This document shows, piece by piece, positions 10,170-51,350 of a stretch of DNA of 64,000 nt (within the stretch, counting starts at the first letter, position 1; every line of letters begins with the position of its first letter). This DNA comes from Propionicicella superfundia DSM 22317. Its GTDB lineage: Bacteria > Actinomycetota > Actinomycetes > Propionibacteriales > Propionibacteriaceae. Under the pieces are notes generated by a model. It was not told where the DNA came from. It worked only from the letters and a program-made list of their open reading frames with translations, and ran no database searches. The position numbers were made by a program, and so were the translations under genes. The DNA lies in assembly GCF_000423465.1 (NCBI RefSeq), contig NZ_KE384020.1:17409-81408 (forward strand). Direction: 5' to 3'.

Positions 10170-10170
10170 A

Positions 10171-11092: not shown

Positions 11093-11134
11093 ATCCGCGT
11101 ACTGCCCCGCTGACGTGGAAGGACACCCGCTCTC

Positions 11135-13886: not shown

Positions 13887-15778
13887 CAGCACCGTCCGGG
13901 ACCGTCCGACTCACCGTCGGACAGGCTCTCATCCGCTTTCTCGTCAACCAGTACTCCGAGCGCGATGGCGCGGAGCACCGGCTCATCGCCGGTGCCTTCG
14001 GGATCTTCGGCCACGGCAACGTGTGCGGCGTCGGGCAGGCACTGCTCCAGAACGAGCTCGACCCCGCGGCGGACGGCGGTGAGCTGCCGTACATCATGCC
14101 GCGCAACGAACAGGGCATGGTGCACGCGGCGGCGGCCTTCGCCAAGTCCACGAACCGGATGCAGACCTGGGCGTGCACGTCGTCGATCGGCCCGGGCGCG
14201 CTGAACATGGTGACCGGCGCGGCACTCGCCACGACGAACCGGCTGCCCGTCCTGTTGCTGCCGTCGGACCAGTTCGCGACCCGGGTCCCCGATCCGGTGC
14301 TGCAGCAGGTCGAGAACCCGCAGACCCTCGACACGTCGGTGAACGACGCCTTCCGCTGCGTCGCCGCGTTCTTCGACCGGGTCAACCGCCCCGAGCAGCT
14401 CTTCCCGTCGCTCCTGCAGGCGTTCCGCACCCTCACCGACCCGGCGGATACGGGAGCGGTCGTGCTCGCCCTGCCGCAGGACGTCCAGGCGGAGGCATTC
14501 GACTTCCCCGTGGCGATGTTCCGCAAGCGGGTGTGGCACGTCCGGCGCACCCCGGCCGACACCGCGTCCCTGGATCGCGCGGTCGAGCTCATCCGCGCGG
14601 CCGAGCGCCCGCTGGTCGTCGCCGGGGGAGGGGCGATCTACTCCGCGGCGTCGCAGGAACTGCGTGAGTTCGCCGCGGCCACGGGCATCCCGGTCGCCGA
14701 CACCCAGGCCGGCAAGGGCGCGATCAACGCCGACCATCCGCAGTCGGTGGGCGGCGTGGGGTCGACCGGCGGTGCCGCGGCGAACCACCTCGCCGAGCGG
14801 GCCGACCTCGTCGTGGGCGTGGGAACGCGCTATTCCGACTTCACCACGGCGTCCCACACGCAGTTCAAGAACCCCGCCGTGACGTTCGTCAACGTCAACG
14901 TGCGGGCCTTCGACGCCGTGAAGCACAGCGCCGAGATGGTGGTCGCCGACGCGCGCGAGACGCTGGCCGCGCTCACCGCCGCACTGGACGGCCACACGGT
15001 CTCACCGGAGTACGCCGCGGAGGTCGCGGCCCAGAAGGCCGCGTGGGACGCGGCGTCCTACGCGGCGAGCCACACCGGTCACGGCCCGATCCCCGCCCAG
15101 ACCGACGTCTTCGGGGCGCTCAACGAGCTCATGGGCGACGACGACGTCATGATCAACGCCGCGGGGTCCATGCCCGGCGACCTGCAGGCCCTGTGGCGTG
15201 CGCGCACGCCCGTCCAGTACCACGTCGAATACGCGTTCTCCTGTATGGGCTACGAGATTCCCGCGGCGCTGGGGGTCAAGCTCGCGCTGCCGGAGTCCGA
15301 GGTCGTGGCGATCGTGGGCGACGGCACGTACCAGATGCTGCCCATGGAACTGGCGACGATCGCCCAGGAGGGCGTGAAGGTCATCTTCGTCCTGCTGCAG
15401 AACTACGGGTTCGCCTCGATCGGCGCCCTGTCGGAGTCGCACGGCTCGCAGCGGTTCGGGACGCGGTACCGCACGGGCGGATCGGGTCATCTGCAGGAGG
15501 GCGTGAAGCTCGGCGTGGACATCGCCCAGAACGCCCGCTCCTGGGGCATCGACGTCATCGAGGTCTCGACGATCGACGAGTTCAAGGAGGCGTACCGCAG
15601 CGCGGCTGCGAGCGACAGGGCCACGATGATCCACATCGAGACCGATCTCTGCGGCCCCAACCCGCCGTCGTCGTCCTGGTGGGACGTCCCCGTCGCCGAG
15701 GTGTCCCGGATCGAGTCGACCGCGCGGGCGCGCGCCGAATACGTGACGGGTCGCGCGTCGCAGCGTCACTACTGCTAG
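13883..15778 (+). CDS. iolD: 3D-trihydroxycyclohexane-1,2-dione hydrolase (ThDP-dependent)
   Basis: A 631-residue ThDP enzyme of the acetolactate synthase superfamily that opens the cyclic dione ring to 5-deoxy-glucuronate. The N-terminal Pyr domain has MPRNEQGMVHAA with the activating Glu. The PP domain has GDGTYQMLPMELATIAQEGVKVIFVLLQN near 478, the GDG...N cofactor motif. The central domain near 215-330 is the ALS-like Rossmann part. The ATG at 13883 follows GAAGGAGG and overlaps iolB. A longer in-frame extension upstream is antisense-like reading of iolB and is not used. Confidence 0.94.
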   Translation: MTAPSGTVRLTVGQALIRFLVNQYSERDGAEHRLIAGAFGIFGHGNVCGVGQALLQNELDPAADGGELPYIMPRNEQGMVHAAAAFAKSTNRMQTWACTSSIGPGALNMVTGAALATTNRLPVLLLPSDQFATRVPDPVLQQVENPQTLDTSVNDAFRCVAAFFDRVNRPEQLFPSLLQAFRTLTDPADTGAVVLALPQDVQAEAFDFPVAMFRKRVWHVRRTPADTASLDRAVELIRAAERPLVVAGGGAIYSAASQELREFAAATGIPVADTQAGKGAINADHPQSVGGVGSTGGAAANHLAERADLVVGVGTRYSDFTTASHTQFKNPAVTFVNVNVRAFDAVKHSAEMVVADARETLAALTAALDGHTVSPEYAAEVAAQKAAWDAASYAASHTGHGPIPAQTDVFGALNELMGDDDVMINAAGSMPGDLQALWRARTPVQYHVEYAFSCMGYEIPAALGVKLALPESEVVAIVGDGTYQMLPMELATIAQEGVKVIFVLLQNYGFASIGALSESHGSQRFGTRYRTGGSGHLQEGVKLGVDIAQNARSWGIDVIEVSTIDEFKEAYRSAAASDRATMIHIETDLCGPNPPSSSWWDVPVAEVSRIESTARARAEYVTGRASQRHYC

Positions 15779-15873
15779 GAGCCTGCCGAGCGCCCGGGTC
15801 CCGGCGCGTCCCCGCTGGGAGCCGCGTCGTCCGGGGCTGTGCCGACGGACCGGCCCGGGCCTGAGGTGTTCCC

Positions 15874-15990
15874 TCACCTCCCCGGCGCCGGGACGTCGGG
15901 CTCGACGGTGACATCGGCCGCCGTGGTGTCCGGGAGCACCGACCGGACGCGGCGGTGGCCCTCCGGCGTCTTCGGCAGTGCGCACGAGAC
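15874..15990 (-). pseudogene. Possible 3' remnant of a protein gene
   Basis: Read on the minus strand, about 38 codons ending in TGA at 15874-15876 give CALPKTPEGHRRVRSVLPD and then TTAADVTVEPDVPAPGR. Nearly every third base is G or C, a strong coding signature in this genome, yet no start or ribosome site fits because the mmsA promoter lies just upstream. It looks like the tail of a gene whose front was lost. I cannot name the family. Confidence 0.25.
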
Positions 15991-15999
15991 GCTCCCGTG

Positions 16000-16035
16000 A
16001 TTTGTGCTGACAAATGACCTGGCGTTGGTTACAGT
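16000..16035 (+). promoter_or_regulatory. mmsA promoter overlapped by GntR-type dyad
   Basis: ATTTGT-GCTG-ACAAAT at 16000-16015 is a perfect inverted repeat with 6-base arms. The -35 box CTGACA (16007-16012) lies within it and TACAGT (16030-16035) follows after exactly 17 bases. A protein bound here would block polymerase, so this copy looks like a repressor site. It matches the dyads at the transaldolase, iolC and alcohol dehydrogenase promoters. Confidence 0.7.
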
Positions 16036-16110
16036 GTTGCCGCGGCGCCGGACCGCACGCCGTGCGTCACCGGCGAGAACCCCTTCAACGATGAACGGCA
16101 AGGAGCACAG

Positions 16111-17604
16111 ATGAAGACGATCGTCCATTGGATCGACGGTGCGCCCTACGAGGGCAACCCGGTCGGCCGCCACCCGGTGGAGAACCCGGCGACGGGGGAG
16201 GCCGAGGCAGAACTCCTGATGGCCGGCCCCGAGGATCTGGACCATGCCGTCGAGGTCGCCGCTCGCGCTCAGCGGGAATGGGCCAAGGCACCGCTCTCGC
16301 AGCGCACCGAGGTCATGTTCCGGATGCGTCAGCTCGTGCTGGACCACCAGGAGGAACTGGCCGAGCTGATCGTCGCCGAGCACGGCAAGAACTACTCCGA
16401 CGCGATCGGCGAGATCCAGCGGGGCCGGGAGACCCTGGACTTCGCGACGTCCATCAACGCGGCGCTGAAGGGCGAGTTCTCCTACGACGTCTCGCGCGGG
16501 GTGGACGTGCACACGATCCGCCAGCCCATCGGCGTCGTCGCGGGCATCTGCCCGTTCAACTTCCCCGCCATGGTGCCGATGTGGATGCACCCGATCGCGA
16601 TCGCCACCGGCAACGCGTTCATCCTGAAGCCGGCGTCGCCGACGCCGTCGGCGGCCATCCTGACCGGCGAGCTGTACAAGGAGGCGGGCCTGCCCGACGG
16701 CGTCTTCAACGTCGTCTGCGGCGACCGCGAGACCGTGTCGCGCATCCTCACGCATCCCGGGATCGACGCGATCTCGTTCGTGGGGTCCACACCGGTCGCC
16801 CATGTCGTGCAGGACACGGGAACCTCGCACGGCAAGCGGGTGCAGGCCCTCGGCGGGGCGAACAACCACGCGATCGTCCTGCCGGACGCCGATCTCGACT
16901 TCGCGGCCGGGCACATCTCGGCCGCGGCGTTCGGAGCGGCGGGGGAGCGCTGCATGGCCCTGCCGGTCGTCGTCGCCGTCGGGGGGATCGGCTCCGACCT
17001 CGCGCGGCGGGTCAAGGCCCATGCCGAGCGGATCAAGGTCGGTCCCGGCATGCACGAGGGCGTCGAGATGGGCCCGGTCATCACGGGGTCGGCGAAGAAG
17101 CGGATCGTCGGGCTGATCGACGACGCCGAGCAGCGGGGCGCCACGGTGGTGCTCGACGGCCGCGGCCTCGTGGTCCCCGGGCACGAGGGCGGGCACTTCC
17201 TCGGCCCGACGGTGCTCGACGACGTTCCGCTCGAGGCGCCGGTGTACCACGAGGAGGTCTTCGGCCCCGTCCTCACGATCGTCCACGCCGACACCTATGA
17301 CGAGGCGCTGCGACTGGTGAACGGGCAGCCGTTCGGCAACGGTGCGGCGATCTTCACCAACGACGGCGGCATGGCTCGCCGCTTCCAGTTGGACGTCGAG
17401 GCGGGGATGGTCGGCGTCAACGTCCCGATCCCGACGCCGGTCGCCTACTACTCCTTCGGCGGCTGGAAGGAGTCGCTGCTCGGCGACACGCACATCCACG
17501 GTCCCGAGGGCGTGCGCTTCTACACGCGCGCCAAGGCCATCACGTCGCGCTGGCCCTCGGAACGGACCTACACCGCGACAATGTCCTTCCAGCGGGAGGA
17601 CTGA
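16111..17604 (+). CDS. iolA: CoA-acylating (methyl)malonate-semialdehyde dehydrogenase
   Basis: A 497-residue aldehyde dehydrogenase that turns malonate semialdehyde into acetyl-CoA and CO2, the last inositol step; the same enzyme (MmsA) handles methylmalonate semialdehyde from valine, giving propionyl-CoA. Seen are the family motif GICPFNFPAMVPMWM, the catalytic Cys281 in GERCMAL, and EEVFGPVL. MmsA-type enzymes differ from ordinary aldehyde dehydrogenases in lacking the general-base Glu in the ELGG motif, and here that place reads ALGGANNH, consistent. It has its own promoter with the cluster dyad and an AAGGAG ribosome site, and the TSUP gene follows. Confidence 0.94.
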   Translation: MKTIVHWIDGAPYEGNPVGRHPVENPATGEAEAELLMAGPEDLDHAVEVAARAQREWAKAPLSQRTEVMFRMRQLVLDHQEELAELIVAEHGKNYSDAIGEIQRGRETLDFATSINAALKGEFSYDVSRGVDVHTIRQPIGVVAGICPFNFPAMVPMWMHPIAIATGNAFILKPASPTPSAAILTGELYKEAGLPDGVFNVVCGDRETVSRILTHPGIDAISFVGSTPVAHVVQDTGTSHGKRVQALGGANNHAIVLPDADLDFAAGHISAAAFGAAGERCMALPVVVAVGGIGSDLARRVKAHAERIKVGPGMHEGVEMGPVITGSAKKRIVGLIDDAEQRGATVVLDGRGLVVPGHEGGHFLGPTVLDDVPLEAPVYHEEVFGPVLTIVHADTYDEALRLVNGQPFGNGAAIFTNDGGMARRFQLDVEAGMVGVNVPIPTPVAYYSFGGWKESLLGDTHIHGPEGVRFYTRAKAITSRWPSERTYTATMSFQRED

Positions 17605-37896: not shown

Positions 37897-37917
37897 CCGC
37901 GTACGGGCCCCAGGGGC

Positions 37918-38322
37918 TCAGAATCCCCGTCCGGGCTGCTGCCGCGCGGAGGACGGCTGCTGAGCGTATGGCTGCTGCCCGGTGAACGACTGCGGCGGGT
38001 ACGGCGGTTGTGGCACAGAGGGTGGTTGGGCGGGCGTGCGGGGGGACCCGGCCACAGCCACGGCCGTGATCAGCAGGGCCACGCCGAGGACCAGGCCTCC
38101 GTACCCGAGGAGGGCCCGGATCACGGCCGTCTCGGGGATCGCGCCCGTGGAGAACAGCGCCATCCCGATGACCGCCGGCACGAGCTGAGAGGCCACGATG
38201 ACCAGCGTTCCGGCCCAGAGGAGGCCCCGCGCCCGCTTCGCGAGGACCGTACCGATCACAGCGACGGCGATCAGCAGCAGCGACACCAGGGACGGCCCGG
38301 CCAGAAACGCCCAGTAATACAT
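37918..38322 (-). CDS. Small membrane protein with Pro/Gln-rich tail
   Basis: A 134-residue protein I cannot assign. Three hydrophobic spans (about residues 5-27, 34-57 and 66-92) precede a cytoplasmic or external tail very rich in Pro, Gln and Tyr (PPSVPQPPYPPQSF). Such low-complexity tails occur on actinobacterial membrane proteins. It is convergent with the mannosyltransferase gene, 21 bases apart, and divergent from the MFS gene. Confidence 0.65.
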   Translation of the reverse strand: MYYWAFLAGPSLVSLLLIAVAVIGTVLAKRARGLLWAGTLVIVASQLVPAVIGMALFSTGAIPETAVIRALLGYGGLVLGVALLITAVAVAGSPRTPAQPPSVPQPPYPPQSFTGQQPYAQQPSSARQQPGRGF

Positions 38323-38484
38323 GCCTCGAGCCTATCGGCGCCGGAGGTCCCCGCCGTGCCGGTGGCGTCGGCCGCGGGGCGGGAGGTCCCGGTGGTGGTC
38401 CCGCTGTCCGCTCCGCAACCGCGATCCGGGACGGCGGGCGCCGGGTGTATCGTTGTCTCACCATTTGCTCATTAGGAGACTAAG

Positions 38485-39840
38485 GTGTCCGACCTCACCA
38501 CATCGCCGGTCCGTCCGCTCACGCGGGCAGAGCGCCTCGACCGGCTCCCGTTCACGCGCAAGCACGCCAGACTGCTGGTCGGCTCGGGCGTCGGCTGGGC
38601 GCTCGACGCGATGGACGTCAGCCTCATCTCGTTCGTCATGGCCGCACTGGCCAAACAGTGGCAGCTCGATGCGACGACCCTGTCCGTGATCGCCTCGGTC
38701 GGCTTCGTGGGAATGGCTCTCGGAGCCGGCCTGGCGGGCCTCCTGGCCGACCGCATCGGACGCAGGCAGGTGTTCGCGCTCACCTTGCTCGTCTACGGGC
38801 TCGCCACCGGCGCGTCGGCACTGGCGACGAGCGTCGCCCTCCTGATCGCGCTCCGCTTCGTGGTCGGTCTCGGGCTCGGCGGCGAGCTGCCGGTGGCGTC
38901 CACGCTCGTCTCGGAGTACGCCCCGCGAGCGATCCGCGGCCGGATGGTCGTTGCACTGGAGGCCTTCTGGGCGGTCGGATGGCTGGTCGCCGCTCTCATC
39001 GGCTACCTTCTCGTCCCCGCCGATCCCAACGGCTGGCGCTGGGCGTTGGCCGCAGGGCTGCTCCCGACCGTCTATGCCGTCTTCGTCCGGCTGCGGCTGC
39101 CCGAGTCGGTGCGTTTCCTGGAGAAGAAGGGCCGTCACGCCGAAGCGGAACGGGCCGTCCGCGAGTACGAGGAGGCGGCAGGCGTGCCCGCGCCCGCTCC
39201 GGACGAGATCGCCGCGGCGGACCAGGATGCGCAGAGCGGGGAGGCGGTCACGCGGCGGTCCATCTGGGCGCCCGACCTGCGCGTTCGCACCGCCGCGCTG
39301 TGGGCGGTCTGGTTCTGCATCAACCTGTCGTACTACGGGGCGTTCATCTGGATCCCGTCACTGCTGGTGGAGCGCGGGTTCCCTCTTGCCAAGTCGTTCG
39401 AGTTCACCTTGTACATCACACTCGCGCAACTCCCGGGATACCTGCTGGCGGCCATCCTTGTGGAGATCTGGGGCCGGCGCGCCACGCTCGTCACGTTCCT
39501 GGCCGGTTCGGCGGTCGCAGCGGCGCTGTTCGGGTTCGCCGCCGAGCCGTGGCAGATCATCGCCGCCGGCTGCATGCTGTCGGTCTTCAACCTCGGCGCG
39601 TGGGGAGCGCTGTACGCCGTCGGGCCCGAGCTGTATCCGACGAGCATCCGGGGGCGTGGCACGGGAGCGGCGGCCAGCTTCGGGCGCATTGCGTCGATCA
39701 TCGCGCCGCTGGCCGTGCCGCCGTTGCTGCATCTCGGCGGCGAGGCTCTGGTGTTCGGCGTGTTCGGCGTGTCGTTCGCGTTGGCGGCCGTATCGGCCGG
39801 TTTCCTTCCAGAACGGAAACACGTGGCGCTCGAAGGTTGA
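38485..39840 (+). CDS. MFS transporter, sugar/acid porter type
   Basis: A 451-residue major facilitator with twelve spans. The loop 2-3 motif reads GLLADRIGRRQVF, loop 4-5 has RFVVGLGLGGELPVASTLVSEYAP and the 8-9 loop has EIWGRR. GWALDAMDVSLISFVM in helix 1, with acidic residues, and GPELYPTSIRGRGTG resemble the SV2-like and aromatic acid/niacin porters more than the sugar porters. GTG start at 38485 follows AGGAGACTAAG. Substrate uncertain; it is not clearly linked to either catabolic cluster nearby. Confidence 0.85.
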   Translation: MSDLTTSPVRPLTRAERLDRLPFTRKHARLLVGSGVGWALDAMDVSLISFVMAALAKQWQLDATTLSVIASVGFVGMALGAGLAGLLADRIGRRQVFALTLLVYGLATGASALATSVALLIALRFVVGLGLGGELPVASTLVSEYAPRAIRGRMVVALEAFWAVGWLVAALIGYLLVPADPNGWRWALAAGLLPTVYAVFVRLRLPESVRFLEKKGRHAEAERAVREYEEAAGVPAPAPDEIAAADQDAQSGEAVTRRSIWAPDLRVRTAALWAVWFCINLSYYGAFIWIPSLLVERGFPLAKSFEFTLYITLAQLPGYLLAAILVEIWGRRATLVTFLAGSAVAAALFGFAAEPWQIIAAGCMLSVFNLGAWGALYAVGPELYPTSIRGRGTGAAASFGRIASIIAPLAVPPLLHLGGEALVFGVFGVSFALAAVSAGFLPERKHVALEG

Positions 39841-40194
39841 TGCACGCTTGAAACACCGCTTATGAGCGAACTCGAATCGTGGTTCTCGGGCGAGTGCCTA
39901 TGATACGTTCGAGCCACGCATGGGACGCGTCAGAGCGATGTTGCTTGTCCGGAAGGGGGTTGGCATGATCCTGGTCCAGGTTTTGGCGGTCTGTGGTCAG
40001 TCTCATACCTCTCCTCAGCGGGGCGACAGATGCCCTGAGGCGCGTACCGGTGGCGGCGCGGTCACGCTGTGCCGTCCGGGCGCCCCATGACAAAGGTCAA
40101 TCCTCGGCAAGGTCGAAGCCAGGTGCTTGGCCGCGCGACTGTCGGCGACGGGGCCACAGTCGTTACTCCTAGTCATCGAAAGTGATGGGAAAAC
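39841..40194 (+). promoter_or_regulatory. Upstream region of the permease-kinase locus
   Basis: Between the MFS stop and the permease start lie a -10-like TATGAT at 39899-39904, CTCGAA at 39871-39876 with its inverse TTCGAG at 39908-39913 (a loose dyad around the -10), and a small open frame with a strong ribosome site (listed separately). About 100 bases after it have no recognisable motif. The leader would be some 285 bases long. Confidence 0.4.
39965..40090 (+). CDS. Possible 41-residue leader peptide
   Basis: ATG 39965 to TGA 40088-40090 encodes 41 residues beginning MILVQVLAVCGQSHTSPQ. A strong ribosome site GGAAGGGGG at 39951-39959 lies 5 bases before the ATG, better than that of the permease gene behind it. 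The product resembles nothing I know. It could be a regulatory leader ORF or a chance frame; GC at third positions is not exceptional. Confidence 0.3.
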   Translation: MILVQVLAVCGQSHTSPQRGDRCPEARTGGGAVTLCRPGAP

Positions 40195-41280
40195 ATGACA
40201 TTCGACATCGTGCAACACCTGTTCTGGTTGATTGCGGCGCTCGGTGGCGGCTTCTTCGGCGCTGCTATCGGCGGTAACTTCTCGTTCGTCATCACCGGCT
40301 TCACCGCCCTGATGGCATTGGGTGCGGCCGCGATCCCCACCACCACGGGCGATCCGGGTGCCGTCTCCGCCACGGTCTTCGGCTACCTGGCGTTCGGTCC
40401 GTTCACCGGCCCGCACGTGGCCTTCGGTGGTGCGGTCGCCGGTGCGGCGTACGCAGCGCATAAGGGTTACACCGAGTCCGGCAAGGACATCGTCCTTCCG
40501 CTGGCACGCCTCGGCAAGCCCGACGTCCTGCTCGTCGGCGCCCTGTTCGGCGGCATCGGCTACATCATCCAGCAGATCTACGCGAACATCCCCTGGTTCG
40601 GGACCCACACCGACAGCGTGGCGGTCACCGTCGTCACCTCGGCGCTCATCGTTCGTGCTGTCTTCGGCAAGAACGCCACCGATCCCGAGCACGGCAGCTC
40701 GCTCGTCAACTTCGAGAAGCGGATCGACGGCCTCAAGCCGCGCGACGACGCTGCCTGGCTGCGTCATATGGAGACCCCGGGCCAGTTGGTCCCGCTGGGC
40801 TTCTTCGCCGGTCTGCTCGCCGCCGGTGCGGCCCTGTACCTGGCCTTCACGTTCCCGGGCATCGCTGGCAACGCCAACGTCTTCCCGTTCGCCATCTCGG
40901 CCGTGACGATTCTGTTCCTCAACATCGGCTACAACATCCCTGTCACCCACCACATCACCAACATCGCGGGTCTGGGCGCGATCATGTTCTTCCCGATCTT
41001 CCTCGGGAATGCTGCCTACGGGCCGAAGGGCTTCGACCCGACCGCGTTCGCGCACGCGCTGACCACCGACAGCAAGATGGCCGGTGCGGCCATCGGCGCT
41101 CTCATCGTCGGCGCTCTGTTCGGTGTCATGGCGGCGTTCCTGGGTGAGTTCGGCGCCCGGCTGCTCTACAACCGTGGCACGACCCACATCGACCCTCCGG
41201 CCTTCGCCATCTTCATCAGCAACACGATCGTCTGGGTCGTCGCGCTGATCGTGCAGGCCGCGGCCGGCATCGGGGCCTAG
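40195..41280 (+). CDS. Unrecognised multi-span permease of the polyol locus
   Basis: A 361-residue hydrophobic protein with about nine or ten membrane segments. I do not recognise a characterised family. Gly- and aromatic-rich helices carry polar residues inside the membrane: FGAAIGGNFSFVITG near 20-35, FGPFTGPHVAFGGAVAG near 65-85, and NIPVTHHITNIAGLGA near 245-262. A soluble loop around residues 165-195 contains charged residues. It is first in a set with an HAD phosphatase and a sugar kinase, so import of a polyol or sugar is the natural guess. The ribosome site is weak (GATGGG). No signal for a channel or a known transporter signature was seen. Confidence 0.7.
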   Translation: MTFDIVQHLFWLIAALGGGFFGAAIGGNFSFVITGFTALMALGAAAIPTTTGDPGAVSATVFGYLAFGPFTGPHVAFGGAVAGAAYAAHKGYTESGKDIVLPLARLGKPDVLLVGALFGGIGYIIQQIYANIPWFGTHTDSVAVTVVTSALIVRAVFGKNATDPEHGSSLVNFEKRIDGLKPRDDAAWLRHMETPGQLVPLGFFAGLLAAGAALYLAFTFPGIAGNANVFPFAISAVTILFLNIGYNIPVTHHITNIAGLGAIMFFPIFLGNAAYGPKGFDPTAFAHALTTDSKMAGAAIGALIVGALFGVMAAFLGEFGARLLYNRGTTHIDPPAFAIFISNTIVWVVALIVQAAAGIGA

Positions 41281-41337
41281 TAGCCACAGCACCATCCTGA
41301 GCACCATCAACAACTGATCGACAGACAGAGAGAGACA

Positions 41338-42213
41338 ATGCGCACCATGCAGGAGACGGACGTCCTGAAGTCCCCTGAGGAGTTTTACGACGCCTACATC
41401 TTCGACATGGATGGCACTATCTATCTGGGTGAGGGACTCCTGCCCGGCGCAGCGCGGATGATCAACGAGCTGCGCCGGCGGGAGATCCCCGTCCGCTATC
41501 TGTCGAACAATCCCACCAAAGATCCCGAGATGTACGTCAAGAAGCTCCAGAAGCTGGGGCTCCCGACGCCCATCGAGGACATCTCCAACACGGTCGTGAC
41601 GACAACGAACTGGCTCCTTCAGCACTACCCGGACGCCGTCTTGTTTCCGATCAGCGAAGAGCCTCTCAAGCGGGCCCTGCGCAACGCCGGGTTCGTCCTC
41701 TCCGAGGACCCCGAAGAGATCGACATCGTCATCGCGAGTTACGACCGCACTTTCGAGTACAAGAAGCTCCAGATCGCCTTCGATGCGATCTGGTATTACA
41801 AGCGCGCATTCATGATCCAGACCAACCCGGATCGATTCTGTCCCTTTCCGGGGGGGCGTGGAGAGCCCGACTGCGCGTGCATCGTCGCCGCCATCGAGGC
41901 CTGCACGCGGGTCAAGAGTCAGGCGAACCTCGGCAAGCCCGACCCCATCATGCTCGAGACGATCATGCAGAGCCTCCCGAGCGCCCGGGTCGAGCATTCG
42001 ATCATGGTCGGGGACCGGCTGCAGACGGACATGCAGATGGCCATCGACGCCAACATGGTGTCCGGCCTCGTCCTCACCGGCGAGGCGACCATCCCCGATG
42101 TGCTGAAGCGCACCGAGGAACAGCGCCCCTCCTTCGTCATGGATCGTGTTGACCGGCTCATCCCGCAATGGGCATGGGACGAGCTGGGCTGGACCGTCGA
42201 CAACGACGCGTAG
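41338..42213 (+). CDS. HAD-IIA sugar phosphatase (AraL/NagD-like)
   Basis: A 291-residue HAD hydrolase with a C2-type cap. The nucleophile motif DxD is Asp23 and Asp25 in FDMDGTIYLGEGLLPGA; SNNPTKDP is the motif-2 threonine/serine region, GKPDP near 200 has the motif-3 Lys and MVGDRLQTDMQMA the acidic motif 4. Bacillus AraL, in the arabinose operon, has this architecture and removes phosphate from sugar phosphates. It sits between the permease and the FGGY kinase and may detoxify over-accumulated polyol phosphates. Ribosome site is AGAGAGAGACA. Confidence 0.88.
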   Translation: MRTMQETDVLKSPEEFYDAYIFDMDGTIYLGEGLLPGAARMINELRRREIPVRYLSNNPTKDPEMYVKKLQKLGLPTPIEDISNTVVTTTNWLLQHYPDAVLFPISEEPLKRALRNAGFVLSEDPEEIDIVIASYDRTFEYKKLQIAFDAIWYYKRAFMIQTNPDRFCPFPGGRGEPDCACIVAAIEACTRVKSQANLGKPDPIMLETIMQSLPSARVEHSIMVGDRLQTDMQMAIDANMVSGLVLTGEATIPDVLKRTEEQRPSFVMDRVDRLIPQWAWDELGWTVDNDA

Positions 42214-42306
42214 CCGATGGCCCGGCCGGCCGCACACGACGTCCGTGTGCGGCCGAAGAGCTATATGCCCGCATCCATCCAGAAACTGAGTCCAACGGAG
42301 TTCTCA

Positions 42307-43869
42307 ATGTCATACGTCATGGGTATCGACTTCGGCACCGAAAGCTGCCGAGTCGCCCTCTTCGATCTCGAAGGCCGTCCCGTCACCTTTGCCGCGACGC
42401 CGTACAAGACCACTCATCCTCGCCCGGGTCGCGCCGAGCAGAGTCCCAAGGACTGGTGGGACTGTCTCATCGCCTCCACGCACAAGGTCATGGAGAGCTC
42501 CGGCGTCGCCGCCCACGAGATCGTCGGCATCGGCTACGACTGCACCACGGCGACCGTCGTGCCCATGGATGAGAAGGGCGAGGAGTTGCGCGACGCCATC
42601 ATGTGGATGGACGTCCGCGCGACGGAGCAGGTGCAGCGCCTCGAGGATGCGCGCGCGAACGGGTTCGACTCCAAGGGTCTGCTGTACAACGGCGGCGGCA
42701 CGGTGGGTGCCTCGGCCGAGTGGTACCCCTTCAAGGCCGCCTGGATCAAGGACAACGAGCCCGAGATCTACGCCAAGGCGTACCGGATCGTCGACGCCAC
42801 CGACTGGCTGACCTTCAAGCTCACCGGCGAGTGGAGCCTGTCGATCAACACCGCGGCCTTCCGCATGTACTACAACCGCGACTTCGGCGGCTGGCCGGTC
42901 GACCTGTACGAGACGATCGGCATCGGCGACGTCTTCGACAAGATCCCCGAGCGGATCCTCGACGTCGGCCAGCCCGTCGCGGGCCTGTCGACGGTCGCCG
43001 CCCAGCTCCTCGGCCTGCTCCCCGGCACGCCGGTGGCGCAGGGCATGGCGGACGCCTTCGCCGGCCAGGTCGGTCTCGGCGTGGTGACCCCGGGCAAGAT
43101 GGCCCTCATCACCGGCTCCTCCCACGTGCTCGCGGGCCAGTCCGACAAGCCCGCCTACGGGCCCGGCTTCTGGGGCTCCTACACCGACGGCGTCGTCCCC
43201 GGCCAGTACTCGGTCGAGGGTGGCCAGGTCTCCACCGGCTCGGTCATGAAGTGGTACAAGGACAACTTCGCCTCCGACATGGTGGCGACGGCCGACAAGA
43301 CCGGCCTGTCCGTGTACGACCTGCTCAACAGGGCCGCCGCCGACGTTCCGGTGGGCTCGGACGGCCTGATCGTCAACGAGTACTTCCAGGGCAACCGGAC
43401 GCCGTACACCGACGCGAAGGCGCGCGGCATCATCTGGGGCCTGTCGCTGGCGCACGGCACCGCGCACATCTACCGGGCCATCCAGGAGGGCATCTGCTAC
43501 GGCACCGCCCACATCCTGCGCGAGATGGGCAAGGCCGGCTTCGAGGTGAAGGAGCTCGTCGCGTGCGGCGGCATGACCAAGAGCCGCGAGCTCATGCAGC
43601 TCCATGCCGACATCACCGGCGTGCCGATCACGATCACCGAGGTCGGCGACGCGGTGGCGCTGGGCTCCTCGATGCTCGGTGCGGTGGGCGCCGGCGTGTA
43701 CGGCAACGTGGCCGAGGCCGCGTCGAAGATGGTGCACACGCTCGACCAGCTCACGCCCGACCAGGAGAAGCACGAGGAGTACAAGTTCTACTTCGAGAAG
43801 TACACCGAGTCCTACCCGGCGATGCGTAGCCTGGTGCACGAGGTTGTGGATCACGAAGCAGCCAAGTGA
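42307..43869 (+). CDS. FGGY-family carbohydrate kinase (pentulose/polyol type)
   Basis: A 520-residue kinase of the ribulokinase/xylulokinase superfamily. Phosphate-binding GIDFGTESCRVALFD starts the first actin-like domain; GIGYDCTTATVVPMDEKG and MWMDVRA lie in the sugar site; the C-terminal domain has ATP-binding GSSHVLAG, YFQGNRTPYTD and ACGGMTKS. It phosphorylates a ketose or polyol; the exact sugar is not readable. The motif pattern is closer to D- or L-ribulokinases than to glycerol kinase. A strong stem-loop follows its stop. Confidence 0.88.
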   Translation: MSYVMGIDFGTESCRVALFDLEGRPVTFAATPYKTTHPRPGRAEQSPKDWWDCLIASTHKVMESSGVAAHEIVGIGYDCTTATVVPMDEKGEELRDAIMWMDVRATEQVQRLEDARANGFDSKGLLYNGGGTVGASAEWYPFKAAWIKDNEPEIYAKAYRIVDATDWLTFKLTGEWSLSINTAAFRMYYNRDFGGWPVDLYETIGIGDVFDKIPERILDVGQPVAGLSTVAAQLLGLLPGTPVAQGMADAFAGQVGLGVVTPGKMALITGSSHVLAGQSDKPAYGPGFWGSYTDGVVPGQYSVEGGQVSTGSVMKWYKDNFASDMVATADKTGLSVYDLLNRAAADVPVGSDGLIVNEYFQGNRTPYTDAKARGIIWGLSLAHGTAHIYRAIQEGICYGTAHILREMGKAGFEVKELVACGGMTKSRELMQLHADITGVPITITEVGDAVALGSSMLGAVGAGVYGNVAEAASKMVHTLDQLTPDQEKHEEYKFYFEKYTESYPAMRSLVHEVVDHEAAK

Positions 43870-43875
43870 TCTGAT

Positions 43876-43913
43876 CGTGTGGGCTTGGCCGATCCGTCGG
43901 CCAAGCCCACACG
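43876..43913 (+). terminator. 17-bp perfect stem-loop after the FGGY kinase
   Basis: CGTGTGGGCTTGGCCGA (43876-43892) pairs perfectly with TCGGCCAAGCCCACACG (43897-43913), loop TCCG. It lies 7 bases after the kinase stop, 45 bases before the dehydrogenase start. With no T-run it may be a partial terminator or a stability element separating expression of the kinase and the dehydrogenase. Confidence 0.65.
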
Positions 43914-43958
43914 TGTGCGGTAACCAGTCAAGTCGACAACTATCCTGAAGGATCGGCG

Positions 43959-45314
43959 ATGTCAGAACTCATCGAACGGGCGCTGCAGAGCGCTCACGAA
44001 ACCAAGCAGGTCATCAGCGCCGCCGGGGCACTCGACGAGGTCGCGTCCGTGTTCTCCGAGGCGTTCCCGGGGGCCACCGCGATCGTGATCGGCGACGAGC
44101 GCACGATGGCGGCCGCCGGCGACAAGGTGGCCGCGGTCCTGGCCGCCGCAGGTGTGTCGACGCTCGACCCGTACGTGTTCCCCGGCGAGCCCGAGCTGTA
44201 TGCGAAGTACGAGAACGTGGAACTGCTGCGAGGCGTCCTGGAGCCGCTGTCCGCCGTCGCGATCGCGGTCGGCGGCGGTTCGCTGAACGACCTCGTCAAG
44301 CGAACCTCCGGCGAACTCGGGCGGCCCTACATGGTCGTCGCCACGGCCGCGTCCATGGACGGCTATACGGCGTTCGGTGCGTCCATCGCCAAGGACGGCT
44401 ACAAGAACACGCTCAACTGCCCGGCTCCCGTCGCGGCCGTCGCCGACATCGACGTGCTGGCCGCCGCGCCGTCGGTGATGACGGCGTCCGGCTACGGCGA
44501 CCTCATCGGCAAGGTGCCCGCCGGCGCGGACTGGCTGATCGCCGACGCGCTGGGCGTCGAAGCGGTCGACAAGGGGGTGTGGGATCTGGTGCAGGGCCCG
44601 CTGCGGACCTCGCTGTCCCGCCCCGACGCTCTGGCCGCCGGCGACGCCGACGCCGTCGCCGGACTGGCCGAGGGCCTGCTCATGTCCGGCCTGGCGATGC
44701 AGGCGCATCAGTCCTCGCGGCCCGCGTCGGGCGCCGAGCATCAGTTCAGTCACCTGTGGGAGATGGAAGGGCACGGCACCGACATCAAGCCGCGTCGTCT
44801 GTCGCACGGGTTCAAGGTGGCCCTGGGCACCGTCTCGATCGCCGCCCTGTACGAGATCCTGCTGGCGACCGATCTCACCCGTCTCGACATCGACGCCGCG
44901 GTGCGGGCCTGGCCGACACGCAGCCGGCTGGAGGAGAAGATCCGCCGCTACCACAGTCATCCGCAGGTGCTGCCGGCCGCGATCGAGCAGACGATGGCGA
45001 AGTACATCGAGCCCGCCGACCTGGCCGTGCGGCTGCACCAGGTGGTCGAGCTGTGGCCGACGCTGAAGGTCACGCTCGCCGATCAGCTCATCGGCGCCGC
45101 GGAGCTGCAGAAGATGCTCCGCGCCGCCGGAGCGCCCGCCCATCCCGACGACATCCGGCTCGGCTGGGGTGCGTTCAAGGACACCTACGTGCGCAGCCAG
45201 ATGATCCGCAAGCGCTACACGGTGCTGGATCTCGCGCTCGAGGCGAACCTGCTCGACGGGATCGTCGAGGAGCTCTTCGCGGCCGACGGATTCTGGGGCA
45301 CCCAGCAGCCCTGA
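43959..45314 (+). CDS. AraM/EgsA-like iron-type dehydrogenase (polyol-phosphate or sn-glycerol-1-phosphate dehydrogenase)
   Basis: A 451-residue member of the glycerol-1-phosphate dehydrogenase branch of iron-dependent alcohol dehydrogenases. The NAD-binding part has AVGGGSLNDLVK and VATAASMDGYTAFGASI; metal ligands are in SGYGDLIGK, GAEHQFSH and SHGFKVALG (Asp and two His). Bacillus AraM is the best-known bacterial homologue and makes sn-glycerol-1-phosphate. Next to a sugar kinase and AraL-like phosphatase, oxidising a pentitol or tetritol phosphate is an alternative. GAAGGAT precedes the ATG. Longer than AraM (about 394) by a C-terminal helical part. Confidence 0.82.
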   Translation: MSELIERALQSAHETKQVISAAGALDEVASVFSEAFPGATAIVIGDERTMAAAGDKVAAVLAAAGVSTLDPYVFPGEPELYAKYENVELLRGVLEPLSAVAIAVGGGSLNDLVKRTSGELGRPYMVVATAASMDGYTAFGASIAKDGYKNTLNCPAPVAAVADIDVLAAAPSVMTASGYGDLIGKVPAGADWLIADALGVEAVDKGVWDLVQGPLRTSLSRPDALAAGDADAVAGLAEGLLMSGLAMQAHQSSRPASGAEHQFSHLWEMEGHGTDIKPRRLSHGFKVALGTVSIAALYEILLATDLTRLDIDAAVRAWPTRSRLEEKIRRYHSHPQVLPAAIEQTMAKYIEPADLAVRLHQVVELWPTLKVTLADQLIGAAELQKMLRAAGAPAHPDDIRLGWGAFKDTYVRSQMIRKRYTVLDLALEANLLDGIVEELFAADGFWGTQQP

Positions 45315-45485
45315 CGCGCTGGCCGGGGTGCCGGCGGGGAGTCCGACCGTCGGCACACCCGCGCAATCGGGCCCGACCCCCGCGGACCGTTTCCCGTACT
45401 GCCCCCGTAGTCGCAGCGGGGAAGTAGGGTGAGGGATGCGCCCCTCATCGACTCTGCGCCGAGTAGATTCCACAGAAAGGCACTC

Positions 45486-47552
45486 ATGAACACTCCGCTT
45501 ACCTGGACCGAGCAGGACGCCAAAGCTGTCGACATCGCTCGGGTGCTGGCCGCCGACGCGGTCGACAAGGTGGGTAACGGCCATCCCGGCACGGCCATCT
45601 CGCTGGCTCCCGCCGCCTACCTGTTGTACCAGAAGGTCCTGACGGGCGATCCCGCCGATCCGCGCTGGGTCGGCCGCGACAGGTTCGTCCTGTCGGCGGG
45701 CCACTCGTCCATCACCCAGTACAACCAGCTCTTCCTCGCGGGGTACGGCCTCGAGATCACCGACATCGCCGCGCTCCGCACCTGGGGCTCCCTCACGCCG
45801 GGTCACCCCGAGTTCGGGCACACGGCGGGCGTGGAGACGACGACCGGGCCGCTGGGCGCAGGCATCTCCAACATGGTCGGCATGGCCATGGCCGCCAAGC
45901 GCGAGCGCGCGCTGCTCGATCCCGACGCCCCGGCCGGCGAGAGCATCTTCGACCGGTTCATCTTCGGGATCGCCGGCGACGGGTGCATGCAGGAGGGTGT
46001 CGCGTCCGAAGCGGCGTCCCTGGCGGGCAACCTCGAACTCGGCAACCTCATCCTCATCTACGACGACAACCGCATCACCATCGAGGGCGACACGAAGATC
46101 GCGTTCAGCGAGGACGTCCTGAAGCGCCACGAGGCGTATGGGTGGCACACGCAGCACGTCGACTGGACGCACGGCGGCACCGAGTACGCCGAGGACGTGC
46201 AGGCTCTCTACGACGCCATCGAGGCCGCCAAGGCGGTCACGGACAAGCCGTCGATCATCCGCCTGACGACCATCATCGGCTGGCCGCTGCCCACCAAGGC
46301 GGGCAGCCACAGCGTCCACGGCTCGAAGATCGGGGCGGAGGAGACGGCCGCGCTGAAGAAGGTCCTCGGTCTCGATCCCGAGAAGAGCTTCGACGTGGAC
46401 GCCGGGCTCTTGGCCTACACCCGCGGCAACGCCGCCGACCGCGCCGCCGCCGCGAAGCAGGCGTGGACCGCGAAGTACGAGGCGTGGCGCGCCGCGAAGC
46501 CCGAGAAGGCCGCGCTGTTCGACCGGCTCGTGAAGCGCGAACTGCCCGCCGACTTCGAGAGCGCGCTGCCGGTGTTCGCGCCGGGGAAGAAGGCGACGCG
46601 TGCGGCGTCCGGCGAGGTGCTGTCGGCCCTGGCCGATGCCATCCCGGAGCTGTGGGGCGGCTCGGCCGACCTCGCGGGTTCGAACAACACGACGATGAAG
46701 GGCCAGCCGTCCTTCCTCGCGCCGGGGCACAGCACGGCGGAGTGGTCGGGCGACTACAGCGGGCGGACCTTGCACTTCGGCATCCGCGAGCACGCGATGG
46801 GCGGTGTCATCAACGGCATCGCGCAGTCGGGCCTCACGCGGCCCTACTGCGGGACGTTCCTGGTCTTCTCCGACTACATGCGGCCGACCGCTCGCCTGGC
46901 GGCGCTGCAGAACCTGCCGAGCACGTTCGTGTGGACGCACGACTCGATCGGCGTCGGCGAGGACGGACCGACACACCAGCCGATCGAGCATCTCGCGTCG
47001 CTGCGGGCGATCCCGAACTTCGACGTCGTCCGTCCGGCCGACGCCAACGAGACCGCTGCGGCGTGGGCGCAGATCCTGCGCAACACGCGTCCGGCGACGA
47101 TCGTGCTGTCCCGTCAGGATCTGCCGATCTTCGACCGCGACAACGGGTTCGCCTCCACCGAGGGCGTCGCGAAGGGCGCCTACGTCCTCAAGGAGGCCAG
47201 CGCGGCGCCGCAGGTCGTCCTCATCGGGACGGGCTCTGAGGTGCAGCTCGCCGTGGCCGCCGCCGAGCGGCTGGAGGCCGGGGGAATCCCGGCGCGCGTC
47301 GTGTCCATGCCGTGTGTCGAGTGGTTCAACGAGCAGGACGACGCGTATCGGGCGAGCGTCCTGCCCGCGGGCGTGGTGCGCGTGAGCGTCGAGGCCGGTG
47401 TGCCGCAGGGCTGGCGCGAGATCGTCGGCGATTCGGGCCGGATCATCGGGATCGACCACTTCGGCGCGTCCGCCAACGGCAACCTGCTGTTCGAGAAGTT
47501 CGGCATCACGGCCGACGCCGTCTACGCGGCCGCCAAGGACGCCCTGGCCTGA
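45486..47552 (+). CDS. tkt: Transketolase
   Basis: A 688-residue ThDP enzyme moving two-carbon ketol units between sugar phosphates of the pentose-phosphate pathway. It has the conserved GHPGTAISLAP near 32, GPLGAGISNMVGMA near 120, the ThDP motif GDGCMQEGVASEAASLAGNLELGNLILIYDDN, and the pyrimidine-domain HFGIREHAMGG and THDSIGVGEDGPTHQP. The ATG at 45486 follows AAAGG; an upstream frame extension is rejected. It lies 171 bases after the dehydrogenase and may take up pentose or tetrose phosphates from the adjacent locus. Confidence 0.96.
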   Translation: MNTPLTWTEQDAKAVDIARVLAADAVDKVGNGHPGTAISLAPAAYLLYQKVLTGDPADPRWVGRDRFVLSAGHSSITQYNQLFLAGYGLEITDIAALRTWGSLTPGHPEFGHTAGVETTTGPLGAGISNMVGMAMAAKRERALLDPDAPAGESIFDRFIFGIAGDGCMQEGVASEAASLAGNLELGNLILIYDDNRITIEGDTKIAFSEDVLKRHEAYGWHTQHVDWTHGGTEYAEDVQALYDAIEAAKAVTDKPSIIRLTTIIGWPLPTKAGSHSVHGSKIGAEETAALKKVLGLDPEKSFDVDAGLLAYTRGNAADRAAAAKQAWTAKYEAWRAAKPEKAALFDRLVKRELPADFESALPVFAPGKKATRAASGEVLSALADAIPELWGGSADLAGSNNTTMKGQPSFLAPGHSTAEWSGDYSGRTLHFGIREHAMGGVINGIAQSGLTRPYCGTFLVFSDYMRPTARLAALQNLPSTFVWTHDSIGVGEDGPTHQPIEHLASLRAIPNFDVVRPADANETAAAWAQILRNTRPATIVLSRQDLPIFDRDNGFASTEGVAKGAYVLKEASAAPQVVLIGTGSEVQLAVAAAERLEAGGIPARVVSMPCVEWFNEQDDAYRASVLPAGVVRVSVEAGVPQGWREIVGDSGRIIGIDHFGASANGNLLFEKFGITADAVYAAAKDALA

Positions 47553-47571
47553 CCCGGGCGGCCTGCCGCAC

Positions 47572-47639
47572 ATACGCCGAGCGCTCCCGAACTGCCGGAT
47601 TCGCGTAGGTTTCCGCCAGTTCGGGAGCGCTCGGCGTAT
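47572..47639. terminator. Bidirectional 23-bp perfect stem between tkt and glgP
   Basis: Positions 47572-47594 (starting ATACGCCGAGCG) are the exact inverse of 47617-47639 (ending GCTCGGCGTAT), with a 22-base loop. It lies midway between the tkt stop and the glgP stop of two convergent genes, so should end transcription from both sides. The piece GAGCGCTCGG recurs at 47656-47665, hinting at a repeat element. Confidence 0.75.
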
Positions 47640-47666
47640 CTGGGCGACAGAAGCGGAGCGCTCGGC

Positions 47667-50243
<2,577 letters not shown>

Positions 50244-50309: not shown

Positions 50310-51350
50310 TCAGGGGAGAACGGCGATCTTCACGCCCGTGCGCTGCTTGAGGGCGTCATAGGCGCCGAACAGGTCGCTCAGCGGGAACTGGTGGCTGACG
50401 ATCGGCGCGGCGTCGATGAGCCCCGACTCGAGCACGGCGATGGCGCGGCGGACGTCGCGTCGGCGCGCATTGGACCCGCCGGTCACGACGAGTTCCTTGT
50501 AGTGGACCAGGTTCGGGTCCATGACAGCGGTCGATCCCTTGGGGAAACCGGCGAAGTAGCTCACGCGGCCGCCGATCCCGGCGAGATCGAGCGCGACGTT
50601 GGCGAGGTCGAGGCCGCCGATGCAGACCACGACGACATCGGCACCGGCGCCGTCGGTGGCGTCGCGGACGAACGCCGCCAGGTCGGTCGCGGAGGGGTCC
50701 ACGGTGTGGGTCGCGCCGCACACGAGTGCAGCTTCGCGCCGCGCGGCTGACCGATTGCTCACGATGATCTGCCGGGCGCCGGCCATCCTGGCCGCCAGTT
50801 GGGTGTGGAGGAGGCCGATCGGGCCCGCACCGAGGATCACCACGGTGTCGCCGGGCCCGGCCGCGTACTGGTCGAACCCGTTGAGGCAGCATGACACGGG
50901 CTCGGACAGCGCGAGCGTCGTCGGCGGGATCTCGACGGATGTCGTCATGAGGTTCCCCTTTGCGACGACATCGGCGGGGACGAGCATGTACTCGGCGAGC
51001 CCGCCGTCGATGCCGTACCCGAACAGGGCCAGGTCGGCGCACAGGTGCTCGCGGTCGTTGAGGCAGGCGCGGCACCTGTTGCACGACACGACGATGGAGA
51101 CGGTGGCCTGCTGGCCCACCGCGTAGCCGACGACGCCGTCACCCACCGCGGCGATGCGTCCGGCGATCTCGTGCCCCGGGACGACGCCGGGACGGACGCC
51201 GGCCGTCTTCGACCCGTCGAGGATGCGGATATCGGTCCCGCACAGGGTCGTCGCCTCGATCTTGAGGAGGACGTCCCCCGGCCCGGGCTCGGGGACGTCC
51301 CGTGTGACCAGCTCCAGATGGTTCGGCTCGTGCAGCACTGCGCTCAGCAT
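50310..51350 (-). CDS. Zinc-dependent polyol/sorbitol-type dehydrogenase (MDR)
   Basis: A 346-residue MDR dehydrogenase. TTLCGTDIRILDG and PGHEIAGRI give the catalytic zinc site; SCNRCRACLNDREHLC gives four structural-zinc Cys; ILGAGPIGLLHTQLA binds NAD. LSEPVSCCLNGFDQ is typical of the sorbitol/threonine dehydrogenase group. Substrate is likely a polyol such as sorbitol, galactitol or ribitol. Both neighbours (glgP on the same strand, sppA divergent) are unrelated, but it could supply ketose to the FGGY kinase pathway 7 kb away. Confidence 0.85.
   Translation of the reverse strand: MLSAVLHEPNHLELVTRDVPEPGPGDVLLKIEATTLCGTDIRILDGSKTAGVRPGVVPGHEIAGRIAAVGDGVVGYAVGQQATVSIVVSCNRCRACLNDREHLCADLALFGYGIDGGLAEYMLVPADVVAKGNLMTTSVEIPPTTLALSEPVSCCLNGFDQYAAGPGDTVVILGAGPIGLLHTQLAARMAGARQIIVSNRSAARREAALVCGATHTVDPSATDLAAFVRDATDGAGADVVVVCIGGLDLANVALDLAGIGGRVSYFAGFPKGSTAVMDPNLVHYKELVVTGGSNARRRDVRRAIAVLESGLIDAAPIVSHQFPLSDLFGAYDALKQRTGVKIAVLP

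What the first reader, a model, noticed from the sequence alone, without database searches (positions are those of the whole stretch)
39965..45314. Candidate undescribed polyol/pentitol utilisation locus with a new permease type
An unfamiliar 361-residue, 9-10-span permease is followed by an AraL-like HAD phosphatase, an FGGY kinase and an AraM-like dehydrogenase, then transketolase. AraL and AraM occur together in the Bacillus arabinose operon without a settled pathway role, so their pairing here with a kinase and a permease but without arabinose isomerase or epimerase suggests another substrate: for example erythritol, ribitol or another pentitol, phosphorylated by the kinase and oxidised by the dehydrogenase into the pentose-phosphate pool, with the phosphatase as overflow valve. 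Alternatively it produces glycerol-1-phosphate-like compounds.
Basis: inference. Interest (0 to 1): 0.8.

Follow-up and report, generated by a model that had tools for sequence, protein, structure and literature searches.

The report
Probable polyol catabolism operon, new permease
A conserved gene set in propionic-acid bacteria, with a transporter of an unnamed family, a sugar kinase and a relative of an archaeal-type glycerol-phosphate enzyme, probably breaks down a small sugar alcohol such as erythritol, for which clear genes were still missing in the papers I could read.

Summary
In detail: an unclassified 361-aa permease, HAD-IIA phosphatase, FGGY kinase, AraM-like dehydrogenase and transketolase lie in a row. 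The order is conserved: 8 of 10 genomes with the permease (own included, of 57 searched) have the phosphatase beside it, and a genome of another class carries RpiB-AraM-permease-HAD-kinase together. The permease has no Pfam, NCBIfam or PDB relative; elsewhere it often sits beside glycerol or dihydroxyacetone kinase genes, also in a haloarchaeon. AraM paralogues follow a glucitol-type PTS, which points to polyol-phosphate substrates. Best reading: polyol uptake, phosphorylation, NAD-linked oxidation by AraM, entry into the pentose-phosphate pool; erythritol is the first candidate, ribitol the second. Propionibacterium freudenreichii ferments both, and a 2015 study could not assign the genes (PMC4437456). 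Substrate, transport and phosphatase role are inferred. Against: 34 of 86 family AraM genes share an operon with none of these genes; the window lacks the DeoR and RpiB genes of its sisters; sister RpiBs mostly fit a ribose-5-phosphate isomerase model best; the transketolase is the genome's only full-length one.

The parts
38485..39840 (+). MFS transporter (sugar/aromatic-acid porter type), upstream; loosely linked
   Evidence: Pfam Sugar_tr/MFS_1; below the cut-offs of the 25 NCBIfam models shown; a 67% identical gene lies upstream of the sister operon in L019
40195..41280 (+). permease of an undescribed family (361 aa)
   Evidence: no Pfam, NCBIfam or PDB relative for it or for a 23-sequence family alignment, chance-level hits only; 28 invariant columns in 23 sequences
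41338..42213 (+). HAD-IIA (NagD/AraL-type) phosphatase; catalytic motifs kept
   Evidence: motif conservation in 37 aligned sequences
42217..43869 (+). FGGY-family kinase, AraB-like but below the cut-off of each of the 13 NCBIfam models it hits; likely start 42307
43959..45314 (+). AraM-like dehydrogenase (Fe-ADH_2) with the Asp and His residues of the metal site kept (D181, H261, H283; ligand role recalled)
45486..47552 (+). transketolase (only full-length copy found in the genome; a 283-aa open frame on C2 holds a shorter transketolase N-domain)
50310..51350 (-). zinc-dependent MDR dehydrogenase whose 44-54% relatives lie near permease, HAD, AraM, kinase or dihydroxyacetone-kinase genes elsewhere; possible outlying member

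Best explanation
The locus is a small-polyol catabolic operon. The permease brings in a meso-polyol (erythritol first, ribitol second). The FGGY kinase phosphorylates it. The AraM-type enzyme oxidises the polyol phosphate to a ketose phosphate with NAD(P)+. An isomerase (an RpiB in sister operons; here perhaps one encoded elsewhere) and transketolase pass it into the pentose-phosphate pool. The HAD phosphatase probably clears the dead-end polyol phosphate that arises when a meso substrate is phosphorylated at the wrong end. Shown: gene content, conservation, family assignments, intact catalytic motifs. Inferred: every reaction, their order, the substrate and the phosphatase role.
For: Order conserved: HAD beside the permease in 8 of 10 genomes (own included) that hold the permease among 57 searched; of 26 family permease loci read (window included; some found through AraM, so biased) 22 have HAD, 20 AraM, 19 the kinase, 19 DeoR and 16 RpiB within three genes; another class has RpiB-AraM-permease-HAD-kinase-ZnADH contiguous. 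On a Rubrobacter plasmid, permease, TKT and kinase precede DAK-HAD-AraM-RpiB-kinase. Outside the family, 14 of 19 readable permease loci have a gene labelled glycerol/DHA/polyol within three genes (some labels weak), GlpK in 8; GlpK also in Microbacterium and in a haloarchaeon. AraM shares a same-strand operon with a glucitol-type PTS in 15 of 86 family cases, 6 with HAD; of 20 PTS-linked loci only 1 has a gene with a crude SDR motif within eight genes. RpiB of five sister operons: 134-186 bits to the DerI model, housekeeping RpiB 53. No AraA found in this genome although it carries AraM-AraB-AraD; 12 of 20 genomes with AraM near AraB show no AraA. P. freudenreichii: all 21 strains ferment erythritol, adonitol and glycerol, the erythritol and adonitol pathways could not be reconstructed, and a locus with two araB, araM and araL is reported in all (PMC4437456, passages).
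Against: 34 of 86 AraM genes in the fetched family stretches lie in operons with none of the tested genes (7 of the 34 run to the edge of the stretch). 2 of 10 permease genomes (L021, L022), and the Tessaracoccus locus L014, show none of the tested genes nearby. The window lacks DeoR and RpiB; the own genome's second RpiB, about 68 kb away, fits the general RpiB model best and scores 113 bits to DerI. Of five sister-operon RpiBs, four fit the ribose-5-phosphate isomerase model TIGR02133 best and one passes its cut-off; none passes the DerI cut-off (240 bits); the lead of DerI over the general RpiB model is 0.6 to 17.5 bits. The transketolase may be the housekeeping one. The kinase looks AraB-like, so it may phosphorylate a ketose. 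Some permease-HAD-AraM loci (L055, L058, L060) have no FGGY gene between them and sit next to glp genes. The PTS IIA, GutM and HPr calls are below curated cut-offs, and P. freudenreichii does not ferment sorbitol. PMC2909200 states that annotation of its genome confirmed use of erythritol and adonitol, without genes in the passages seen.
Confidence: 0.55

Rival explanations
1. Same kind of locus, but oxidation comes first or the substrate is a pentitol: the AraM-type enzyme oxidises ribitol or L-arabitol to a ketopentose and the kinase is a ketopentose kinase.
For: The kinase is AraB-like and shares the D-x-T and E-x-G-Q segments with ribulokinase 3qdk. The own genome carries AraM-AraB-AraD and no AraA was found. 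The G260 subtype of AraM goes with AraB in 19 of 20 loci. Four of five sister-operon RpiBs fit a ribose-5-phosphate isomerase model best.
Against: The window AraM is of the E260 subtype, like the aligned PTS-linked ones (18 of 18) and the four solved relatives shown. A PTS delivers phosphorylated polyols.
Confidence: 0.23
2. A glycerol locus: the permease moves glycerol, and AraM plus HAD interconvert dihydroxyacetone phosphate, glycerol-1-phosphate and glycerol as a redox valve.
For: Permease beside GlpK, GlpABC or GlpD in several lineages. AraM of B. subtilis is a G1P dehydrogenase (PMC5059525, passages). Some loci hold permease-HAD-AraM without the FGGY kinase.
Against: The FGGY kinase of the window is not GlpK-like (TIGR01311 167.7 bits of 590.35). 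AraM paralogues follow a glucitol-type PTS. An RpiB in sister operons has no place in a glycerol route.
Confidence: 0.13
3. Accessory part of L-arabinose catabolism, as assigned to the araB/araM/araL locus of P. freudenreichii and the B. subtilis ara operon.
For: Gene families AraL, AraB-like and AraM; the authors of PMC4437456 assigned their locus so.
Against: No AraA in this genome at E 0.001, with 5 of 14 control genomes ringing; 12 of 20 genomes with AraM near AraB show no AraA; 8 of 20 do.
Confidence: 0.05
4. AraM supplies glycerol-1-phosphate for archaeal-type lipids.
For: Described for B. subtilis AraM (passages of PMC5059525 and PMC13400652; the role of PcrB there is recalled).
Against: No PcrB family member found in this genome (control rings in B. 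subtilis). The linkage to kinase, phosphatase and permease looks catabolic. PlsY and PlsC may also use G1P (title of PMC13400652), so this is not excluded.
Confidence: 0.02

Closest known systems
Bacillus subtilis ara operon, araL-araM pair (gene order recalled)
   Same: HAD-IIA phosphatase and AraM-family dehydrogenase encoded together with an FGGY kinase
   Different: no arabinose isomerase found in this genome; a different permease; kinase below the ribulokinase cut-offs; transketolase next door
Propionibacterium freudenreichii second 'arabinose' locus (araB x2, araM, araL; PMC4437456, passages)
   Same: reported gene content matches HAD-kinase-AraM-AraB of the sister operons
   Different: its sequence was not identified here; the paper assigns it to arabinose and the passages seen name no permease
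Rhizobial/Brucella erythritol operon (eryABC, rpiB, tpiB; recalled)
   Same: FGGY kinase; an RpiB and a DeoR-type regulator in sister operons; feeding a sugar phosphate into the pentose-phosphate pool
   Different: the dehydrogenase is AraM-type, not the GlpD-like EryB; no EryC seen; a different transporter
Mycobacterium smegmatis tetritol loci (zinc dehydrogenase, DAK-type kinases, DerI, LerI; recalled)
   Same: zinc dehydrogenase, DAK kinase and RpiB occur around the same gene set in L134, L135, L169, L015 and L017
   Different: here an FGGY kinase, AraM, HAD and, in most of these loci, the new permease are added
Glucitol (gut/srl) PTS operon
   Same: glucitol-type PTS genes precede an AraM paralogue in the same bacterial family
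   Different: AraM stands where the sorbitol-6-phosphate dehydrogenase (SrlD, recalled) is expected; the window locus has a permease and kinase instead of a PTS
Glycerol facilitators (GlpF/MIP)
   Same: genome context beside GlpK and glycerol-3-phosphate dehydrogenase genes
   Different: no MIP or other Pfam match beyond chance; about nine hydrophobic spans; conserved FGPxxGPH-, PVTHH- and HIDPPA-like segments

Membership tests
AraM / glycerol-1-phosphate dehydrogenase family | Fe-ADH_2 fold with Asp and His residues of the metal site | tested here: met
   Pfam PF13685 100.6 bits; D181 in 87 of 88, H261 in 88 of 88, H283 in 88 of 88 aligned AraM sequences; aligned to 9h4x, 5fb3, 3ce9 and 4rgq
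AraM / glycerol-1-phosphate dehydrogenase family | curated score for the glycerol-1-phosphate dehydrogenase equivalog | tested here: not met
   NF002022 147.8 bits, cut-off 413
AraM / glycerol-1-phosphate dehydrogenase family | activity on G1P/dihydroxyacetone phosphate | not testable with these tools
   needs purified enzyme
L-arabinose (ara) operon | L-arabinose isomerase AraA in the genome | tested here: not met
   PF02610 no match at E 0.001; 5 of 14 controls ring; the genome is a draft, 97.97% complete
L-ribulokinase AraB | curated ribulokinase scores | tested here: not met
   window kinase 319.7 of 428 and 257.8 of 583.25; the second kinase of a sister operon (L076) meets both: 709.5 and 663.6
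Rhizobial-type erythritol (ery) operon | GlpD-like EryB dehydrogenase in the operon | tested here: not met
   no such gene among the six scanned proteins of 38485-47552
[quoted passage not shown]
   sister-operon RpiBs 134-186 bits to NF051858, cut-off 240; four of five fit TIGR02133 (ribose-5-phosphate isomerase) best; no RpiB in the window operon; own RpiBs 53 and 113 bits
Any known permease family (Pfam, NCBIfam, PDB) | recognisable relative | tested here: not met
   the structure model failed (mean pLDDT 35.6), so fold kinship is open
HAD-IIA (NagD/AraL) phosphatases | DxD nucleophile motif, Lys and acidic motif | tested here: met
   (37 sequences); subfamily model TIGR01460 94.0 bits, just below its 100.15 cut-off

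The most novel reading that the evidence does not exclude
This operon is the missing erythritol/ribitol pathway of propionibacteria. It founds (a) a new class of polyol-phosphate dehydrogenases within the AraM family, with paralogues for PTS-delivered polyols and for pentitols, which would explain the unexplained AraL-AraM pair, and (b) a new glycerol/polyol permease family shared by Actinomycetota and haloarchaea.
Probability: 0.34. Interest if true: 0.75.

Novelty: new variant of a known kind. Interest (0 to 1): 0.6.

Why it matters
Erythritol use by a propionibacterium is in print since 1968 (titles seen in reference lists), and all 21 P. freudenreichii strains of PMC4437456 ferment erythritol and adonitol, yet that study could not reconstruct the pathways. 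This locus gives concrete candidates. It also offers a catabolic role for bacterial AraM/AraL, and a candidate family of small-polyol permeases outside all libraries searched.

Tried and rejected
Structure of the permease: AlphaFold2 with the two sequences that the rule allows and that I had (window and L014) gave mean pLDDT 35.6, so no fold search was run. Rfam scan of 37900-48000: nothing at gathering score. Promoter/terminator scan: 0 promoter-like sites, 3 terminator-like against 3.1 in shuffles. 'Transketolase as a dedicated operon enzyme' was weakened. Arabinose operon judged unlikely. G1P lipids judged unlikely. A haloarchaeal gene name (glpX) for the permease was recalled; searches did not confirm it, so it is not used. 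Paper searches: (all 10 used); none of the titles and abstract starts listed there describes this operon as a polyol pathway; only the top 10-20 of each search were listed, and papers outside the held library were not searched. On re-checking I lowered the best explanation from 0.58 to 0.55, the novel case from 0.38 to 0.34 and erythritol from 0.35 to 0.3, and raised the pentitol rival from 0.20 to 0.23, because four of five sister-operon RpiBs fit a ribose-5-phosphate isomerase model better than the DerI model.

Not every row was fetched. L169 (52% GC) was missed by the caller and read by plain ORFs. The AraM tree is a quick tree with a midpoint root, 84 of 88 rows (L109_7, L117_8, L138_6 and L139_4 dropped as distant). 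The E/G260 split follows the tree, so it is few independent events. That the 117 genomes are the same draw is assumed from equal settings and handles; 42 non-matching genomes of each call were not listed.
Full report
What is there. Window 40195-47552 (+) encodes a permease (361 aa), a HAD-IIA phosphatase (291 aa), an FGGY kinase (550 aa as listed, probably about 520 from the inner ATG at 42307), an AraM-like dehydrogenase (451 aa) and a transketolase. An MFS gene lies upstream (38485-39840) and a zinc MDR dehydrogenase 2.8 kb downstream on the other strand (50310-51350). The permease hits no Pfam or NCBIfam model and no PDB chain beyond chance, alone or as an alignment of 23 sequences, itself included. 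That alignment has 28 invariant columns, among them D140, H252, H253, E318, R322 and D333.

The genome. The window lies in a 3.6 Mb draft (23 contigs, 97.97% complete).

Conservation. Of 57 genomes searched (own included), 10 hold the permease. In 8 of these 10 the HAD gene is next to it (own, L015, L016, L017, L018, L019, L020 and L023, the last a contig that starts inside the permease); 6 of 10 also have the window-type FGGY kinase (own, L015, L017, L018, L019, L020) and 6 of 10 AraM (own, L015, L017, L018, L020, L023). The full sister operon reads DeoR, RpiB, permease, HAD, kinase, AraM, second FGGY kinase, sometimes AraD, transketolase. The second kinase is an L-ribulokinase by both curated cut-offs in the two copies scanned (L076, L114); the window-type kinase is below every cut-off it was shown against, as are its relatives in L062 and L182. 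In the 26 family permease loci that I read (window included; some found through AraM, hence biased) HAD is within three genes in 22, AraM in 20, kinase in 19, DeoR in 19 and RpiB in 16.

Beyond the family. 16 of 396 genomes drawn from the phylum hold the permease, own included. Of 20 loci fetched from the others, 19 were readable with my gene caller: 14 have at least one gene labelled glycerol, DHA or polyol within three genes (some labels weak), GlpK in 8 and DAK in 8; 5 have none. The twentieth, L169, in a genome marked 'same phylum' only, was read by plain ORFs and has AraD (34%), zinc dehydrogenase, GpsA-like, transaldolase, RpiB (65%), AraM (52%), permease (41%), HAD (59%), kinase (62%) and zinc dehydrogenase (45%) in a row, with DAK on the other strand. 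On a Rubrobacter radiotolerans plasmid the permease and a transketolase precede a kinase, and then zinc dehydrogenase, DAK, HAD, AraM, RpiB and kinase; that L182 and L134 lie on one plasmid follows from equal contig length and the kinase position. A Microbacterium plasmid has FAD oxidoreductase, permease, GlpK, glycerol-3-phosphate dehydrogenase/oxidase; a haloarchaeal plasmid has GlpK and the permease opposite glpABC-like genes.

AraM. The own genome has five AraM-family matches: the window one; AraM-AraB-AraD on C11 (L114); one beside a GlpK-type kinase and a RuBisCO-like gene on C2 (L115); one behind a glucitol-type PTS on C6 (L116); and a distant one on C13 (L117). Of 86 AraM genes in the family stretches that I fetched, 15 share a same-strand operon with glucitol-type PTS genes, 6 of them with HAD too; 34 share an operon with none of the tested genes (7 of them at the edge of a stretch), which weakens the claim that AraM is always part of such a pathway. 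Of the PTS parts scanned, one copy each, IIC and IIB pass curated cut-offs, IIA, GutM and the HPr-like protein do not. Of 20 PTS-linked loci only 1 has a gene with a crude SDR motif within eight genes, so AraM may stand in for the usual sorbitol-6-phosphate dehydrogenase; but P. freudenreichii does not ferment sorbitol, so the PTS substrate is open. A tree of 84 AraM proteins separates a clade of 30 rows that holds the PTS-linked ones and others, a clade of 14 with the window (mostly permease/HAD/kinase/RpiB; SH-aLRT 94) and a clade of 13 in permease operons, 12 of which also carry AraB. Residue 260, just before a metal-site His, is Glu in 18 of 18 aligned PTS-linked AraM, in 14 of 16 permease/HAD loci without AraB (window included) and in the four solved relatives shown; it is Gly in 19 of 20 AraB-linked AraM. 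This suggests two substrate classes but follows the tree.

Isomerase. [quoted passage not shown] the housekeeping RpiB of the own genome scores 53, its second RpiB 113. Against a tetritol reading: in four of the five the best model is TIGR02133, ribose-5-phosphate isomerase (159.5-179.0 bits; L169 passes its cut-off of 168.2), and the lead over the general RpiB model is small (0.6 to 17.5 bits). So the isomerase data fit D-erythrulose-4-phosphate or D-ribulose-5-phosphate, and the window operon itself has no RpiB.

No arabinose. No AraA was found in the own genome (E. coli and B. subtilis are among 5 of 14 controls that ring). Of 20 genomes whose AraM lies near AraB, 12 show no AraA in the family search and 8 do. 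In the 12, L-ribulose should come from another source, for which oxidation of L-arabitol or ribitol by AraM is the simplest guess.

What is known. PMC4437456 (passages read): all 21 P. freudenreichii strains ferment glycerol, erythritol and adonitol, about half L-arabitol, none sorbitol or D-arabitol; the authors failed to reconstruct the erythritol and adonitol pathways and put a locus with two araB, araM and araL under arabinose, while noting that araM and araL are not essential for it in B. subtilis. PMC2909200 (passages), older, says that annotation confirmed import and use of erythritol, glycerol and adonitol, but the passages seen name no genes for erythritol or adonitol; it mentions an extra araB at another locus. 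The 1968 Propionibacterium pentosaceum papers were seen only as reference entries. PMC3245297 (passages) lists EryA as erythritol kinase, found there only in Alphaproteobacteria. PMC9700705 (passages) shows that a haloarchaeal protein annotated as G1P dehydrogenase is a glycolaldehyde reductase, so the annotation name is not a safe guide.

Mechanism and how sure. Polyol catabolic locus: likely (about 0.85). Kinase first, then AraM on the phosphate: more likely than not (about 0.6), because a PTS delivers phosphorylated polyols to AraM paralogues. Erythritol as main substrate: about 0.3; ribitol or L-arabitol next. HAD as clean-up of dead-end polyol phosphates: a guess that explains why it travels with AraM both with kinases and with the PTS.

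Verdict. The parts belong to known enzyme families except the permease; the combination, its likely role and the permease family were not described in the listings and passages that I saw. I rate it a new variant of a known kind (polyol catabolic operon), with a realistic chance of being more.

Noticed in passing
L115:7874-12264 (own genome C2): RuBisCO-like protein (319.7 bits to NF007095, a 2,3-diketo-5-methylthiopentyl-1-phosphate enolase model, cut-off 409) next to a GlpK-type kinase and an AraM paralogue, with aldolase-, isomerase- and HAD-like genes (sequence impression) on the other strand: possibly another uncharacterised sugar pathway.
   Followed up: partly
L116:8413-14626 (own genome C6): Glucitol-type PTS genes, an HPr-like protein and an AraM paralogue in one operon with no SDR-motif gene near.
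   Followed up: partly
window 6991-17604: Looks like a myo-inositol catabolic cluster (iol-type genes on both strands); labels from sequence impression only, not searched.
   Followed up: no
AraM residue 260 (window numbering): Glu in PTS-linked and window-type AraM, Gly in most AraB-linked AraM, right before a metal-site His.
   Followed up: partly
L138:6632-8804 and L139:6641-10327: Rhizobial plasmids carry AraM with a HAD-IIB phosphatase, a GlpD-like gene, an FGGY kinase and sugar ABC transporter genes: a parallel AraM-HAD pairing.
   Followed up: no
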